Part shown: piece after piece, positions 7,606 through 13,470 of the stretch | Position numbering within the stretch: position 1 is the first letter of the stretch | Layout: the number at the start of each line of letters is the position of its first letter | Origin: Streptomyces sp. SLBN-118 | GTDB taxonomy: Bacteria; Actinomycetota; Actinomycetes; Streptomycetales; Streptomycetaceae | Reading direction: 5' to 3' | DNA length: 64,000 nucleotides | Assembly (NCBI RefSeq): GCF_006715635.1 | Contig: NZ_VFNP01000002.1 | Location: 3,162,001 to 3,226,000 of the forward strand | Translations under genes and position numbers: made by a program | The notes under the pieces: generated by a model | What the model saw: the letters and a program-made list of their open reading frames with translations, nothing else | The model's database searches: none | What the model was told of the DNA's origin: nothing

Positions 7606-8496
7606 TCAACCCTCCGCCGCCGCCCGCCCCGTGAGCGTCGTCAGACTGTTGCGGATGTGCGCCATGTGCGCCTGGATCTCCTCGCGGGACGCCTCGTGCT
7701 CCCGCAGCATCCGCTCCGTCTCCTGCGCGATCCGTTCCGCGCGAGCCCAGGCCTCGGCGATCACTTCCGCGGCCCGTGCCTGGACGTCCTCCTGGCCGTG
7801 GCGGGAGTAGTGGTCCGCCTCCGCGAAGGTGCGCTCGGCCTCCGCGAGGCCGGACTCGGCGCGGGAGGCCCGCTCGGCAAGGCAGGCATCCAACTCGTCC
7901 TGCCGGTCGGCGAGTTCACGTTCCATCGCCTCCCAGCGCTCGGCCTGTTCCCGATCCAGGTCGGCCAGCATGGACTCGCCCCTTTGGCGCATCTCCTTCC
8001 ACGCGGCCACGGCCTCCCCTCGCTGCTCCTTGACCTCGCGGCGGGCCTCGATGCGCAGCTCGTCGGCCTCCGCCCGCGCGGCGAGCAGGATCTGCTGGGC
8101 GCGCGCGTCGGCGTCCGCCCGTACGGAATCGGCCTGCTCGCGTGCCGAGTCACGGGTCTGCCGGGCCGCCTCTTCGGCCGCGTCGACCTCGGCCTGCGCC
8201 TCGTTCCGGGCCGCCGTCACCAGCTCTTCGGACTCCTCGGCGGCGAGGGCGAACAGGTACTGGGCGCGGCGCCCAAGCGTCTCGTACGTCTGCTGGGCAA
8301 GCCCCGACACCACCTCGCGCAAGTCGGCCGCGTCCGCCTCCATCTCCTTGGCGAGGACAGTGAGCCGGGCGGCGCGTTCCCAGGCGTCGTCGCGGTCCTG
8401 GGAGAGGGCGGTGACATAGGCGTCGGTCTCCGCCGCCGGGTAGCCACGGCCGCGTACGGCGACGAAGCCGTGAGGTGACAGCGATGCAGCACTCAT
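7606..8496 (-). CDS. Coiled-coil protein, DivIVA / 'cellulose-binding protein' like
   Basis: 296 residues, almost entirely helical with heptads rich in Ala, Glu and Arg. The N-terminus (FVAVRGRGYPAAETDAYVTALSQ) resembles the first segment of DivIVA-like proteins and of Streptomyces proteins annotated as cellulose-binding; coiled coil extends from about 35 to 285. Streptomyces uses several such proteins (Scy, FilP, DivIVA) as polar cytoskeletal scaffolds; whether this one joins them cannot be told. No signal peptide. It stands alone between the WXG100-like locus and the SUKH cluster. Confidence 0.85.
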   Translation of the reverse strand: MSAASLSPHGFVAVRGRGYPAAETDAYVTALSQDRDDAWERAARLTVLAKEMEADAADLREVVSGLAQQTYETLGRRAQYLFALAAEESEELVTAARNEAQAEVDAAEEAARQTRDSAREQADSVRADADARAQQILLAARAEADELRIEARREVKEQRGEAVAAWKEMRQRGESMLADLDREQAERWEAMERELADRQDELDACLAERASRAESGLAEAERTFAEADHYSRHGQEDVQARAAEVIAEAWARAERIAQETERMLREHEASREEIQAHMAHIRNSLTTLTGRAAAEG

Positions 8497-8626: not shown

Positions 8627-8660
8627 GGGCGCCCGGTCTGCCTCAGCAGACCGGGCGCCC
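8627..8660. terminator. Strong hairpin terminator
   Basis: A perfect 15-bp stem GGGCGCCCGGTCTGC / GCAGACCGGGCGCCC with loop CTCA, just downstream of the SUKH-4 gene that ends at 8682 on the minus strand. Confidence 0.85.
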
Positions 8661-8681: not shown

Positions 8682-11252
8682 TTACAGCAGGCCGTCCCAC
8701 ATCTGCTCAAGCAGCACCGACCACCAGCTCTCCGGTGACGCGAGCGCCGCCGGGTCGAGTGCGGCGAGCTGGGCCTGGAAGTCGACCGTCCAGCGGCCGG
8801 CCTGCTCCGGGTTGAGGTTGAAGCGCAGCCGCCACATCCGGCCGAGCAGGGCCAGGCACCGTACGAACTCCGGAAGGCCGCTGTTCACGAACTGCGGCGC
8901 CACCGGCTGACCGCCCGGGCCCGCCTCCACCGGGACCGCGACAATGTGCGCGGTCCCGTACTGGACGCAGATCGCGCGGCCGAAGTCGCTGCCCACCACC
9001 AGATACGAACCCGCGTCGGCCGCGGGCTGCACCTGCCGCTGGGCCGCGAGCTCGGCCAGCGTCGGGACGACCGGCTGCGCGGGCTGGGCCCAGAAGAAGG
9101 GATTGAAGTCGCCCGGCAGACCTGCCCACACCAGCGTGGCGGCCACGATCTCCGGCACACCCTGACGCGAGACGCCCCGCTGGTCGAACCGGCAGATGCC
9201 CTGCGGCCCGAACGCGGCAAGCAGCTCCTGCGCGATGCCCTCCGGAGGGATCGGCGGGGCAGGCGGCATCTGCGGCAGCGGGGCACGCACGGGCGCGGGG
9301 CGCGCCGGGCCGTCGGCGACCTGGTGCAACTCCCCCTGGTGCGCCAGCAGTTGCTGCATGCCCTGCTGGCGGGACGCGTGGTCCTTGCCGTACGGGGCGA
9401 TCGAGGTGATACGTGCCTGCGGCCAGCTCTCCCGGATCATCCGCGCGCAGTACGCACCGGGAAGCTCGCACGATTCCAGCTCGGTGTGCAGCTCCAGCAC
9501 CTGCTGCGGCGGCACGTTCATGGCGCGCAGCTCGTGCAGGATCTGCCACTCCGGGTGCGGAGTGCCGGGTGCCGATCGGCGGATCAGCTGGGCCTCGGAG
9601 CCGTCGGGCGCGCGGTAGCGCAGCACGGCCTGGTAGCCGGGGCCGACGGTGGGCATGCCGGTCGGCTGCTGCGGATAGCCGTACGCGGGCGGCTGAACGC
9701 CGTGCGGCGGCTGGGGCGCAGGCGGAACGGCACCGGGCGGCGGGCCGGGAGGAGCACCGGGCGGGCCGGGCGGCTGGGGCACGCCGGGGCCCGCCTGGGC
9801 GGGACCGGCGAGCATCGTCGCGGCATGGTGCACGCCACCACCGGGCGGACCAGGAGGCGTCGGTGCGCCGGGCGGACCGGGAGGCTGGGGCGCACCAGGG
9901 GCTCCGGGCGCGCCGGGAGGGCCCGGGGGCCGCGGAGCACCGGGAGGCTGCGGGGCACCGGGACCCATCCGGCTCGGGTCCGCCAGCATCGTCGCAGCGT
10001 GGTGCACGCCACCCGGCGGCGGGGTGGAACCGGGAGGAGCGGGCGAACCGGGAGGCTGCGGCCCCTCCGGGCCGAGCTGCGGGACAAGCTGCGTCGGCAG
10101 GTAGCCGCCCGCCGGAGCGCCGGGAGCACCCGGCCCCGACGGCGGCGGCGTCGCGCCGGGCCGCGCGCCCGGAGTGCCGGGCGCCCCGGGCGGCGGCGGA
10201 GTCGTAGAACCGCTGCCACGCGAAGCGCCGCGGGCGGCACGGGGCGGCAGGACCGCCTTGCTCGTCGCCGCGTCCGCGATGTCGGCGGCGCCGGGGCTCA
10301 CGGGTCCGGCAGGTCCCGCAGGTCCGGCGGGCGCACCGGTTCCCGGCCGGTCGAGTGCCGGGGCGACCGCGGTCCGTGGCAGCTGGCTGCCACCGGACAT
10401 CAGCGCGGTCGGCGCATCGGCGCCGGTGGCCGGCGGCGGGGTGTCGTCGTCGTCCGACCCGGAGATCGGCGGCGCGAAGACGGTGGCGGGCAGCGGTACG
10501 GACGCGTCGTCCGGCCCGGCCGCGCTGGTGTCCGTCCACGGGGTGGCCCCGGGCGGCGGGGCGGGCTCGGAGGCCGTGGGCTCGTAGTCACCGCCACGGG
10601 CGCCGGGCCAACCGGCCCCGCCCTGCGAGGCGTCGGCACCTGAGCCCCCGCCTGCGGAACCGGCCGAGGACCCGGCTGCGGGCCACGCCGAACCGGAAGC
10701 GGACGACGAACTCCCGCCCGCCTGAGAGGCGTTGGGACCCGCGGCGGCCGAAGCCGCGGCAGGCGCCGACCAGTCGGCCCGCGACGACGGCGAAGAATCA
10801 GTACCGGAACCGGAACCGGAACCCGCACCGGCAGGCGACGCGCCCGAAGCCGCAGCCGACTCCGGCGACCGCCGGTCGGGGATCCCGATCCTGTCCGCCG
10901 CCTCCTGGAGCCACTCCGGCGGGCTCAGCAGGAACGACGTCTGATTCAGGTCGATCCGCTGCGGCGGCTCCGGCGCGGCAGCGGCCGCCTCCTGAACCCC
11001 GTACTCCTCCTCGTACCGGCGGATCACCTCACCCACCGGCAGTCCCGGCCACAGCGTTGCCTCCCCGCTGTCCCGCGCGATCACCAGCCGCTGCTCACCG
11101 CCGTCCGAGCGCGCACCGCCCTCGCGGTCCTCCGCCCACACCACGAAGCCCAGCTCGAACTCCCTCACCCGCACTTCGCGGTGCTGGTACGCGGGCACGT
11201 CGCCGTTGACCCACTCTTCCGCGCGCTCCTGCGCCTGCGCGAAGGTCACCAT
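8682..11252 (-). CDS. Multidomain YrhB(Imm35)-like / deaminase-like / SUKH-4 protein
   Basis: 856 residues. Residues 1-85 (TFAQAQERAEEWVNGDVP ... LVIARDSGEATLWPGLP) look like a YrhB/Imm35 immunity-type domain. About 98-125 is a conserved linker (DLNQTSFLLSPPEWLQEA). About 130-520 is low-complexity Pro/Gly/Ala/Ser with collagen-like PPGPPGAPG runs. About 525-650 holds a deaminase-like domain with an HTE motif near 589 and a C-x6-C pair (CELPGAYC) near 595-602. About 660-856 is a SUKH-4 domain (FNPFFW, VNSGLPEFVRCL, then a C-terminal WW..LLEQMWDG). SUKH and Imm35 domains normally neutralise polymorphic toxins, and the deaminase fold is a common toxin warhead; fusing all in one protein is notable. 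No secretion signal. The ATG at 11252 is 7 bases behind the upstream WHH-SUKH gene. Confidence 0.85.
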   Translation of the reverse strand: MVTFAQAQERAEEWVNGDVPAYQHREVRVREFELGFVVWAEDREGGARSDGGEQRLVIARDSGEATLWPGLPVGEVIRRYEEEYGVQEAAAAAPEPPQRIDLNQTSFLLSPPEWLQEAADRIGIPDRRSPESAAASGASPAGAGSGSGSGTDSSPSSRADWSAPAAASAAAGPNASQAGGSSSSASGSAWPAAGSSAGSAGGGSGADASQGGAGWPGARGGDYEPTASEPAPPPGATPWTDTSAAGPDDASVPLPATVFAPPISGSDDDDTPPPATGADAPTALMSGGSQLPRTAVAPALDRPGTGAPAGPAGPAGPVSPGAADIADAATSKAVLPPRAARGASRGSGSTTPPPPGAPGTPGARPGATPPPSGPGAPGAPAGGYLPTQLVPQLGPEGPQPPGSPAPPGSTPPPGGVHHAATMLADPSRMGPGAPQPPGAPRPPGPPGAPGAPGAPQPPGPPGAPTPPGPPGGGVHHAATMLAGPAQAGPGVPQPPGPPGAPPGPPPGAVPPAPQPPHGVQPPAYGYPQQPTGMPTVGPGYQAVLRYRAPDGSEAQLIRRSAPGTPHPEWQILHELRAMNVPPQQVLELHTELESCELPGAYCARMIRESWPQARITSIAPYGKDHASRQQGMQQLLAHQGELHQVADGPARPAPVRAPLPQMPPAPPIPPEGIAQELLAAFGPQGICRFDQRGVSRQGVPEIVAATLVWAGLPGDFNPFFWAQPAQPVVPTLAELAAQRQVQPAADAGSYLVVGSDFGRAICVQYGTAHIVAVPVEAGPGGQPVAPQFVNSGLPEFVRCLALLGRMWRLRFNLNPEQAGRWTVDFQAQLAALDPAALASPESWWSVLLEQMWDGLL

Positions 11253-11259
11253 CGGGCCG

Positions 11260-12243
11260 TCACCCCTCGTCCGAGATCGGGACGGCGCGCGCGAAGCCGC
11301 CGTCCACCATCAGGTTCGCCACGGTCTCCAGCTCCGGCGGGTTGCCCGCCAGCCGTCGCAGAAAACCGTCGAAGTCGTCGCCGCACGGCAGCAGCAGCCG
11401 TTCCACGCGCTGCTGCGCGGTCCAGCCGTCCTGGTCGCGGGCGTCGTCGTACGCGCAGAACCACACCGTGCCGGTCGCGGAGCCCTTCACCTTCACGGCC
11501 AGGATGCCGCCCTGGACGAACGCGACGCCCAGATAGTCCTTCGTCAGGTGGTCCCGCAGGCACTTGTTGACGTACAGCAGGTCATTGACCGCGGCCTCGT
11601 CCCGCACCGTGAAGAACGGCTGGTCGATCAGCAGTCCCAGCTCGGCGTCGAGCGCCGCTCCGACCGGGGCGCAGCCGCCCGCCGCCTTCAGGAAGGTGCG
11701 GTACGCGCCGGGGAGCCGGTAACCCAGGTCCTCCTCGACGCCCAGCAGTTGCTGCTCGGTCACCGAGACCACGCCCTTGGGGAGCCCGAAGTGCGCGGGC
11801 CGGGTCTCCTGGAGCGGCCGCGTGCCCCGCTTGCTCTGGTCCACGGGCGCCGTCGCCAGACCGCCGTGGTGCCGCAGCAGCGCCTTCACCTCGACGGGGA
11901 CCAGCTCCAGGCGGCGCGTGCCCGGCACGTGATGCCAGGTCCAGCCGTGCGGCGTCGCGACCGCCGGGAGCGTGTCCCACAGCGCATGGCCGTCGGCGTG
12001 CAGCGCCGCGTTCGCCGATACGTAGTCGGTGAGCCGCAGTTCGTCGACGCCGAAGCCCTCCGGCGGCTCGGCGATCTCCGCGGCGGCGCGCGCGTACGGC
12101 GAAAAGTCCGGATAGCCGTTCTCGTCCACACGCACACCTCTGGGGTGGCGCGAGGCCCGGACCGGATCCGGGAAGTTCACGAGCTGCCCGGCATAGGCGG
12201 CGTTCGGTGGCGCGGCCGTGTGCCCGAGCCGACCTGTCGTCAT
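11260..12243 (-). CDS. WHH nuclease-like domain fused to SMI1/KNR4 (SUKH-1) domain
   Basis: 327 residues from the ATG at 12243, chosen for its AGGGGG site and because MTTGRLGHTAAPPNAAYAG is the conserved family start; an upstream in-frame ATG at 12333 is less likely. Residues 40-130 contain GYPDFSPYA and then GWTWHHVPGTRRLELVP (W103-H104-H105) with a later HHGG, the pattern of WHH-type HNH/endonuclease-VII toxins. Residues about 155-327 form a SMI1/KNR4 domain (VEEDLGYRLPGAYRTFLKAA signature). A nuclease-like warhead and an immunity-type domain thus share one chain. It is first in a two-gene operon with the 8682-11252 gene. Confidence 0.88.
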   Translation of the reverse strand: MTTGRLGHTAAPPNAAYAGQLVNFPDPVRASRHPRGVRVDENGYPDFSPYARAAAEIAEPPEGFGVDELRLTDYVSANAALHADGHALWDTLPAVATPHGWTWHHVPGTRRLELVPVEVKALLRHHGGLATAPVDQSKRGTRPLQETRPAHFGLPKGVVSVTEQQLLGVEEDLGYRLPGAYRTFLKAAGGCAPVGAALDAELGLLIDQPFFTVRDEAAVNDLLYVNKCLRDHLTKDYLGVAFVQGGILAVKVKGSATGTVWFCAYDDARDQDGWTAQQRVERLLLPCGDDFDGFLRRLAGNPPELETVANLMVDGGFARAVPISDEG

Positions 12244-12335
12244 GGCGGTTGCCCCCTGCTGCGTTCCGGCTGGTTCAGGACAGCCTATGCGGTGGTGCAA
12301 CAGGGAGGTTCGACGCTCCACTTCCATCACCAACA

Positions 12336-12351
12336 GTCACAATCGTGTGAC
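12336..12351. promoter_or_regulatory. Perfect palindrome in the divergent SUKH/deaminase promoter
   Basis: GTCACA-ATCG-TGTGAC is an exact 6+4+6 inverted repeat inside the 218-bp gap between the divergent WHH-SUKH and YwqJ genes. The position fits an operator acting on both operons. No protein is assigned. Confidence 0.45.
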
Positions 12352-12461
12352 CGAATGCCGACGGGTCGACACGTTTCAGTGCCCCCGCTTCCGCACCACA
12401 CACCCCGTTTGGCAGGCTGTCCCAGCAACTCGGGGGAGTGCAGGGAGGGGACGAGCACACC

Positions 12462-12968
12462 ATGCACACAGCGCAACCGAATACTTCGGGTGATCCACGC
12501 CTCAGCTGGAGCAGCGCCGAGGCCCACCAGCCGCCCGCCCTGGGTCACCGTCGCGACGGCATCCTGCCGGCCGTCGCCGCCGCACTCTCCGTACGCGGCG
12601 AGACCCTCACCAGCACCGCGGGAAAGGCAGACCAGCCACCCGCACTTCACCCGCTCGTACAGGATTTCCTCGACACCCTCACCAGCGGCCAGCGCGAACG
12701 CTTCACCGGCCGCTGCCCGGAGGCGATCCTGCTCTCGCGCCATCTCACGGCGGCCGAGTCGCAGCGCTCGAAACGGGCGCAGCGCAGGCCACTGACCCAC
12801 AGCGAAGCCAAACGGTCCTTGAAGCAGGCCAAGTTGACGGCACGTAGGATCCGAGAGGACGGCGACCCGCTGCACGGCAGTTACGCACCACCCTGCCGGT
12901 CCTGTACGGCCATGCTCGACCACTTCGGGGTACGCCCCGTCGATCCGACCCCACCCGAGAACGGCTGA
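12462..12968 (+). CDS. YwqJ-related deaminase-like protein
   Basis: 168 residues from the ATG at 12462, with GGAGGGG upstream (an in-frame GTG at 12438 is the alternative). The zinc-deaminase pattern is visible: C85-x-E87 (TGRCPEAILLS) and P144-C145-x-x-C148 (APPCRSCTAML), as in YwqJ-family nucleic-acid deaminases of polymorphic toxins. Here it is a stand-alone cytoplasmic protein without an N-terminal delivery domain. It is followed 10 bases later by a SUKH-3 gene, the expected immunity partner. Confidence 0.88.
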   Translation: MHTAQPNTSGDPRLSWSSAEAHQPPALGHRRDGILPAVAAALSVRGETLTSTAGKADQPPALHPLVQDFLDTLTSGQRERFTGRCPEAILLSRHLTAAESQRSKRAQRRPLTHSEAKRSLKQAKLTARRIREDGDPLHGSYAPPCRSCTAMLDHFGVRPVDPTPPENG

Positions 12969-12978
12969 TCCCGCACCG

Positions 12979-13470
12979 ATGCCCGACCACCTGAGCACCA
13001 CCCGCTTCCCCGTCTCCGTGGACGCGGCCCTGCGCGAGGCCGGATGGCAGCCCGGTCGCTGGGACATCAAGCTGGCCGAGCACTGGGCGGACACGCTGCG
13101 CGCGCATGTCTCGCCGGGCGGCCACCGGCACTCGGTCTTTCCGGCGGCCGTCGAGGCATGGGCGGAGTTCGGCGGGCTGCGGGTGACGGCACCGGGCCCG
13201 GGACGGCAGACGGCTCCGAATCCTGTGCGCTTCGACCCGCTGGCCGGGCTGCATCTGGCGCGTACGCTCGCCGATCTGGGGCGGGCGCTGGACACCGAGG
13301 TCTGCCCGCTCGGGGAGGAAGGCGAGGGCCAGGCCGTGCTCGCCATCGACAGCGAGGGCCGCGTATACAGCCTGGACCACACCGGCGACTGGTATCTCGG
13401 CCCGGACATCGACCAGGCGCTCGCCACCCTGGTCACCGGCACCCAGCCGGCCCGTCTGACCCTGGGCTGA
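12979..13470 (+). CDS. SUKH-3 domain immunity-type protein
   Basis: 163 residues with the SUKH-3 layout: AALREAGWQPGRWD near the start, then FPAAVEAWAEFGGL, a FDPLAGLHLARTL segment, and C-terminal VLAIDSEGRVYSLDHTGDWY. SUKH-3 proteins bind and neutralise YwqJ-type deaminases in several polymorphic toxin systems. The gene is 10 bases behind the YwqJ gene, so the pair probably works as toxin-like enzyme and inhibitor. Confidence 0.9.
   Translation: MPDHLSTTRFPVSVDAALREAGWQPGRWDIKLAEHWADTLRAHVSPGGHRHSVFPAAVEAWAEFGGLRVTAPGPGRQTAPNPVRFDPLAGLHLARTLADLGRALDTEVCPLGEEGEGQAVLAIDSEGRVYSLDHTGDWYLGPDIDQALATLVTGTQPARLTLG

What the first reader, a model, noticed from the sequence alone, without database searches (positions are those of the whole stretch)
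8682..13470. Divergent four-gene deaminase / WHH nuclease / SUKH cluster without secretion signals
Four adjacent genes combine two deaminase-like domains, one WHH nuclease-like domain and SUKH-1, SUKH-3, SUKH-4 and YrhB-like immunity-type domains. The two minus-strand genes carry toxin-like and immunity-like domains in one chain; the two plus-strand genes carry them as neighbours. None has a signal peptide, WXG or Rhs delivery domain, so this is not an ordinary polymorphic toxin locus. It lies next to conserved core genes. A cytoplasmic, self-restrained nucleic-acid-attacking system (anti-phage defence or developmental control) is a reasonable hypothesis.
Basis: partly seen in the sequence, partly recalled or inferred. 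Interest (0 to 1): 0.8.

Follow-up and report, generated by a model that had tools for sequence, protein, structure and literature searches.

The report
Domesticated toxin-family deaminase cluster in Streptomyces
Four neighbouring genes built from parts of bacterial warfare toxins and their antidotes appear to have become fixed core genes of the Streptomyces family, and two of them keep the key residues of a DNA/RNA-type deaminase, so these bacteria may carry a built-in, restrained nucleic-acid-editing module whose job is unknown.

Summary
The four genes and nearly all domains are real: A (8682-11252, -) XOO_2897 deaminase + SUKH-4; B (11260-12243, -) WHH + SUKH-1; C YwqJ deaminase; D SUKH-3. 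The YrhB/Imm35 call is not supported. This is no mobile toxin locus: among 121 sampled Streptomycetaceae genomes A and B have strong orthologues in 114 each and C matches in 121, at one locus, vertically inherited; A and B are as constrained as glmU, C and D somewhat less. Zinc/catalytic residues are invariant in A (95 of 95, 61 of 61 loci with A) and nearly so in C, while 12 of 20 chosen accessory A paralogues lost them. A's low-confidence model has an APOBEC/DddA-type fold; C's was uninformative. B keeps WHH, but one canonical nuclease histidine is an invariant lysine: probably crippled. Best reading: a polymorphic-toxin/immunity array domesticated into a core, SUKH-restrained deaminase module with a pseudo-nuclease partner. 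Anti-phage defence is not excluded but unsupported. No held paper names the S. coelicolor genes (inferred SCO3115-3118).

The parts
8682..11252 (-). gene A, 856 aa: conserved N-domain, disordered Pro/Gly/Ala linker, XOO_2897-like deaminase, SUKH-4
10998..11252 (-). A residues 1-85: conserved N-domain, recurring in A-like paralogues (YrhB-like by eye, not confirmed by Pfam)
9678..10877 (-). A residues 126-525: linker rich in Pro/Gly/Ala with repeated AATML-type threonine motifs; disorder judged from composition
9339..9644 (-). A deaminase domain, residues 537-638; H566 (9555-9557), E568 (9549-9551), C595 (9468-9470), C602 (9447-9449)
8703..9233 (-). A SUKH-4 domain, residues 674-850
11260..12243 (-). 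gene B: WHH-type HNH/EndoVII domain fused to SUKH-1
11848..11958 (-). B WHH domain; W104-H105-H106 invariant; K121 (11884-11886) where toxin tips have His (numbering starts one codon before the ATG)
11359..11763 (-). B SUKH-1 (SMI1/KNR4) domain
12244..12461 (.). divergent intergenic region with conserved blocks on both sides (TAGGCTGT before B, TTTGGCAGxCTG before C)
   Evidence: footprint of 133 of 174 loci, those with a gap under 700 bases
12462..12968 (+). gene C: stand-alone YwqJ-like deaminase; C93 (12714-12716), E95 (12720-12722), C153 (12894-12896), C156 (12903-12905), numbered from the GTG at 12438
12979..13470 (+). gene D: SUKH-3 protein, 10 bases after C
8627..8660 (.). perfect 15-bp inverted repeat (terminator-like) after gene A
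   Evidence: read directly from the sequence; no terminator scan was run

Best explanation
A polymorphic-toxin/immunity array that was domesticated in Streptomycetaceae into a fixed cytoplasmic module. A (deaminase and SUKH-4 in one chain) and the C-D pair (YwqJ deaminase with SUKH-3) are catalytically competent zinc deaminases, each held in check by its SUKH domain or partner; B is a WHH toxin tip fused to a SUKH-1 antidote whose nuclease has probably been disabled and which now serves as a nucleic-acid- or partner-binding adaptor. When the SUKH restraint is relieved by an internal signal, the deaminases would act on the cell's own nucleic acid or nucleotides. Shown: domains, residue conservation, synteny, constraint, and (with a weak model) A's fold. 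Inferred: catalysis itself, SUKH inhibition, substrate, trigger, B's role.
For: Near-universal in the family sample: A strong in 114 of 121, B in 114 of 121, C matched in 121 of 121. Same order and orientation beside a histidine kinase and glmU. Protein distances track glmU and the kinase, r 0.63-0.77 over 59 loci. dN/dS 0.16-0.30; A and B below glmU (0.22), C and D at 0.30 and 0.29, near the kinase; enzyme-like and SUKH parts of A and of B at like rates, unlike an arms race. H, E, C, C invariant in A; C-x-E and the two cysteines in C but for one locus, while 12 of 20 chosen accessory paralogues of A lost two or more. A's model: strands and helices in deaminase order; best Foldseek rows are APOBEC3H, AID, APOBEC3B and APOBEC1, with DddA at rank 17. 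Toxin ancestry: in one divergent genus (L138) B-, C- and D-like genes sit behind a 1271-aa Gln_amidase/WHH protein, and on a Burkholderia pyrrocinia plasmid a WHH tip and a SUKH-type gene are adjacent separate genes.
Confidence: 0.5

Rival explanations
1. Standing immunity: the SUKH parts protect against kin toxins and the toxin-like parts are decoys or remnants.
For: SUKH domains are generic toxin antidotes (PMC3482391, passages); B has lost a canonical histidine; a B-like fusion sits inside a toxin locus in L138.
Against: Catalytic residues of A and C are kept although paralogues show they can be lost; no sign of faster evolution in the SUKH parts.
Confidence: 0.15
2. Anti-phage or abortive-infection system: infection releases the deaminases, which alter phage or host nucleic acid.
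Against: No PADLOC match for the four proteins; near-universal at one locus with strong constraint, not patchy; no match for C in 50,697 phage records.
Confidence: 0.12
3. Secreted or injected kin-competition toxins using T7SS or contractile injection, which need no signal peptide.
For: Domains are toxin families; long linker in A; Zhang et al. list WHH toxins with T7SS and PVC export (PMC3482391, passage).
Against: No WXG, LXG or trafficking domain; antidote fused to the toxin part in two of three modules; no diversification.
Confidence: 0.1
4. Small-molecule enzymes: A and C deaminate free nucleosides or related metabolites in ordinary metabolism, with SUKH as structural partner.
Confidence: 0.1

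Closest known systems
Polymorphic toxin systems with Tox-deaminase (XOO_2897, YwqJ) or Tox-WHH tips and Imm-SUKH (Zhang et al. 2012, PMC3482391, passages seen)
   Same: Same catalytic and immunity families, and the same toxin-immunity pairings listed in its Tables 2 and 3; it also notes that SUKH is on occasion fused to toxins
   Different: No delivery module, toxin and antidote fused in two of three cases, fixed core locus, no diversification, WHH altered
DddA-type interbacterial DNA deaminase with immunity protein (PDB 6u08)
   Different: DddA is a secreted effector with a separate immunity protein (PDB title and general knowledge); A has no delivery part and is fused to SUKH-4
WHH Rhs toxin tips with solved structure (PDB 8bd1, 8h8a)
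   Same: B aligns over the GxPDFxPY and WHH motifs (phmmer E 0.23 and 0.8, weak)
   Different: B has lysine where these have histidine (LIPKSVH) and is fused to SUKH-1

Membership tests
XOO_2897-like deaminase (PF14440) | profile match above cut-off | tested here: met
   131.2 bits, cut-off 27
XOO_2897-like deaminase (PF14440) | zinc/catalytic H-x-E and two cysteines | tested here: met
   invariant in 95 of 95 and 61 of 61 loci with A; spacing is C-x6-C, not C-x2-C
XOO_2897-like deaminase (PF14440) | deaminase fold | tested here: met
   low overall confidence, support is that the 16 best Foldseek rows are all deaminases
YwqJ-like deaminase (PF14431) | profile match and C-x-E / P-C-x-x-C | tested here: met
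   97.4 bits; C93, C153, C156 in 99 of 99 loci with C, E95 in 98 of 99, the exception being D
YwqJ-like deaminase (PF14431) | deaminase fold | tested here: inconclusive
   model pLDDT 62, no deaminase among 16 matches
Tox-WHH nuclease (PF14414) | profile match | tested here: met
   52.4 bits, cut-off 25.1
Tox-WHH nuclease (PF14414) | motif WHH, L, H, HxG (PMC3482391 Table 2) | tested here: not met
   WHH kept and HxG mostly kept, the single H is K in 96 of 96 and 80 of 80 loci with B (one of the 96 is L138's paralogue); His in 4 of 4 toxin tips compared and in the two PDB tips
SUKH superfamily | profile match of SUKH-1, SUKH-3, SUKH-4 | tested here: met
Polymorphic toxin system | trafficking or delivery module | tested here: not met
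   none in Pfam or NCBIfam scans
Polymorphic toxin system | variable toxin tips and patchy spread | tested here: not met
Known anti-phage defence system | match to a described defence protein | tested here: not met
   no PADLOC-DB (2023) match at E 0.1 for 4 of 4 proteins
Known anti-phage defence system | protection against phage | not testable with these tools
   needs phage challenge
Imm35 (YrhB) | profile match of A's N-domain | tested here: not met
   no Imm35 match in A or 4 orthologue pieces; E 0.034, below cut-off, in 1 of 6 paralogue pieces

The most novel reading that the evidence does not exclude
Streptomycetaceae carry a dedicated, SUKH-gated nucleic-acid editing module of toxin origin, with a disabled nuclease as targeting partner and a threonine-motif linker as a phosphorylation switch, used for programmed self-editing of RNA or DNA during development or stress.
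Probability: 0.2. Interest if true: 0.9.

Novelty: new variant of a known kind. Interest (0 to 1): 0.62.

Why it matters
Toxin and antidote families are thought of as fast-changing weapons. Here three such modules have become conserved core genes of an antibiotic-producing bacterial family, with deaminase active sites kept under selection. If the enzymes act inside the cell, a major group of bacteria has an unrecognised nucleic-acid-modifying system. Deletion and activity tests in model Streptomyces are straightforward, and the deaminases are also of interest as possible base-editing enzymes.

Tried and rejected
Rejected: 'polymorphic toxin cassette recently acquired by transfer' (family-wide, vertical); 'pseudogenes' (purifying selection, mostly open frames; one search counts alignments with an in-frame stop: 20 of 96 for B and 1 of 99 for C in the family set, and 1 of 80 for B, 1 of 61 for A, 2 of 79 for C in the Streptomyces set; the B cases that locates with one stop reach residues 326-328 of 328, so I take them as the natural end, without checking each). 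'Active WHH nuclease as in toxins' is doubted (histidine to lysine), not disproved. Led nowhere: NCBIfam and PADLOC on A-D (none); PDB sequence searches of C and A (no relevant match); phage search of C (none; only C was tried); fold search of C's model (no deaminase; the model has no confident strands); TTA codons (none in A-D); genes inserted between B and C (or C and D) in some other genera, by eye sugar-metabolism-like or unrelated. Foldseek rows for A all have E above 0.001 and TM-scores about 0.2 by query length, as half the model is low-confidence; unrelated rows begin below the deaminases. The full-length A could not be searched in genomes (machine errors), so A's counts are for its last 331 residues.

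Papers: search listings only; passages of PMC3482391, PMC13170358, PMC9739842, PMC2680258, PMC3878966. Two 2011 papers that I recalled as dealing with deaminase toxins and SUKH proteins were not held, so I cannot say whether they noted these Streptomyces genes.

Full report
WHAT IS THERE. Four genes lie at 8682-13470. A and B run on the minus strand, seven bases apart, and C and D on the plus strand, ten bases apart; the pairs are divergent. Pfam confirms XOO_2897-deam and SUKH-4 in A, WHH/Colicin-DNase and SUKH-1 in B, YwqJ-deaminase in C and SUKH-3 in D, all above cut-off. NCBIfam and PADLOC have nothing for the four. The first 130 residues of A match in 175 of 180 loci searched, and a like N-domain can be read in most of the A-like paralogues, but Imm35/YrhB is not supported. 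A perfect 15-bp inverted repeat follows A.

HOW WIDESPREAD. A protein search with B gave 746 proteins at E 1e-5 or better among the 7998 candidates scored; the 120 listed carry WHH and SUKH-1 domains. Of the 80 loci, 78 show the histidine kinase and 72 show glmU in the stretch held (counted from its rows; several stretches are cut by contig ends, and in L029 a coiled-coil match lies between the kinase and D). In a sample of 121 Streptomycetaceae genomes of 17 genera: A (last 331 residues) matches in 119, of which I count 114 as strong (E below 1e-50; the five weak ones are in genera g2 and g5); B matches in 117, three of them in g5 only about 42% identical, leaving 114; C matches in 121 of 121. 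D was not surveyed on its own. I fetched 100 stretches from 98 of the 121 genomes: 92 hold A, B, C and D; C and D are on one strand in 97 of 97 stretches with both (two stretches with C show no D), within 60 bases of each other in 69; B and C are divergent in 94 of 95, the exception being the toxin locus L138. In some genera B and C are kilobases apart. Beyond the family, as far as this search sees: PF14440 in 14 of 148 class-level genomes, 11 of them of the same genus; C in 19 of 197, 16 of them of the same genus; WHH in 4 of 149 phylum-level genomes, all of the same genus. On plasmids B has 4 matching records, one a Streptomyces plasmid at 38% over nearly its whole length. C has no match among phages.

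SELECTION. Pairwise dN/dS (simple Nei-Gojobori, pairs with glmU dS 0.1-0.6, saturated pairs dropped, 962-1701 pairs per gene), medians: A deaminase 0.18, A SUKH-4 0.19, B WHH 0.16, B SUKH-1 0.18, C 0.30, D 0.29, against glmU 0.22, kinase 0.32 and the coiled-coil neighbour 0.56. Pairs are not independent, and synonymous sites in GC-rich genes are hard to estimate, so these are comparisons, not absolute values. Protein distances correlate with glmU (r 0.63-0.71) and with the kinase (0.72-0.77) over 59 loci, against 0.77 for kinase with glmU, as expected for vertical descent. Enzyme-like and SUKH domains evolve at like rates, which does not look like a toxin-antidote arms race.

ACTIVE SITES. A: H566, E568, C595 and C602 are the same in 95 of 95 family stretches with A (5 of 100 had no A) and in 61 of 61 Streptomyces loci with A (19 of 80 had no A in the stretch held). 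Of 20 A-like paralogue places that I chose from the rows, 8 keep all four residues and 12 have lost two or more, so the scaffold tolerates loss, yet the core gene never shows it in this sample. C: C93, C153 and C156 in 99 of 99, E95 in 98 of 99 with one D; L138's paralogue, which is among the 99, has D there by direct reading. In the Streptomyces set all four are kept in 79 of 79. B: W104, H105, H106, K121, R125 and H126 invariant in 96 of 96 (one being L138's paralogue) and 80 of 80; H127 varies in 2 of the 80 and G128 in 14 of 96 and 4 of 80. Four toxin tips (L138's toxin, Methylobacter, Paraburkholderia, B. pyrrocinia) have His in place of K121, as do the PDB tips, and Zhang et al. list 'WHH, L, H, HxG' for Tox-WHH (PMC3482391, passage). 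B-like fusions in L138 and on the Streptomyces plasmid also have Lys. I read B as a probably crippled nuclease; that is an inference.

ORIGIN. In genus g5, which lacks true A and B in the four genomes sampled, locus L138 holds a 1271-aa protein with papain-fold Gln_amidase domains and a WHH tip, then a gene similar to B's SUKH part by tblastn (no Pfam match), a B-like fusion, a YwqJ-like gene and a SUKH-3 gene. On the B. pyrrocinia plasmid a hemagglutinin-repeat protein ending in WHH is followed directly by a SMI1/KNR4 gene. So the core cluster looks like toxin tips joined to or next to their antidotes, without delivery parts.

WORKING MODEL. Deaminases A and C are kept active but restrained by SUKH-4 and D; B is a pseudo-nuclease adaptor. 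The linker of A is Pro/Gly/Ala rich and carries AATM[LM] 188 times in 92 of 124 orthologues with a readable linker, against 0.04 in shuffled linkers; orthologues are related, so the copies are not independent. Such threonine motifs could be kinase sites (speculation). Nothing here shows the substrate, the trigger or the phenotype.

LITERATURE. Taking SCO3114 (a rod-domain protein, PMC2680258, passage) as the coiled-coil neighbour and SCO3119 (an orphan histidine kinase, PMC9739842, passage) as the kinase, A-D should be SCO3115-SCO3118; this is inferred from gene order, as no S. coelicolor record was examined. Searches for SCO3113-SCO3121 found no held paper naming SCO3115-SCO3118. SCO3119 is named as a possible new target of negative regulation by AtrA (PMC13170358, passage), and SCO3113 was over-expressed in whiA and whiH mutants (PMC3878966, passage); both are weak hints. 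Supplementary files were not searchable.

Noticed in passing
window 12278-12286 and 12414-12422: In the window AGGCTGTCC occurs upstream of both divergent genes; in the footprint of 133 loci the conserved parts are TAGGCTGT (B side) and TTTGGCAGxCTG (C side), so only part of the likeness is conserved. Like promoters are a guess; no start sites are known.
   Followed up: partly
window 9678-10877: A's linker carries repeated AATM[LM] motifs in orthologues: 188 copies in 92 of 124 against 0.04 in shuffles; possible Ser/Thr-kinase or FHA sites.
   Followed up: partly
L257-L276: Many Streptomycetaceae genomes carry accessory A-like paralogues; 12 of 20 chosen ones have lost catalytic residues.
   Followed up: partly
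L138:290-6809: Polymorphic-toxin locus with a Gln_amidase/WHH protein, B-like fusion, YwqJ-like and SUKH-3 genes in a genus that lacks true A and B.
   Followed up: yes
window 7606-8496: Fast-evolving coiled-coil neighbour (probably SCO3114-like) beside A, dN/dS 0.56.
   Followed up: no
L123:2400-3288: Downstream of a deaminase-tipped RHS-like toxin gene lies a repeat tract that reads like a CRISPR array in the translations.
   Followed up: no
L133, L148, L152, between B and C: In some other genera several kilobases of sugar-metabolism-like genes (judged by eye) lie between the B-A and C-D pairs.
   Followed up: partly
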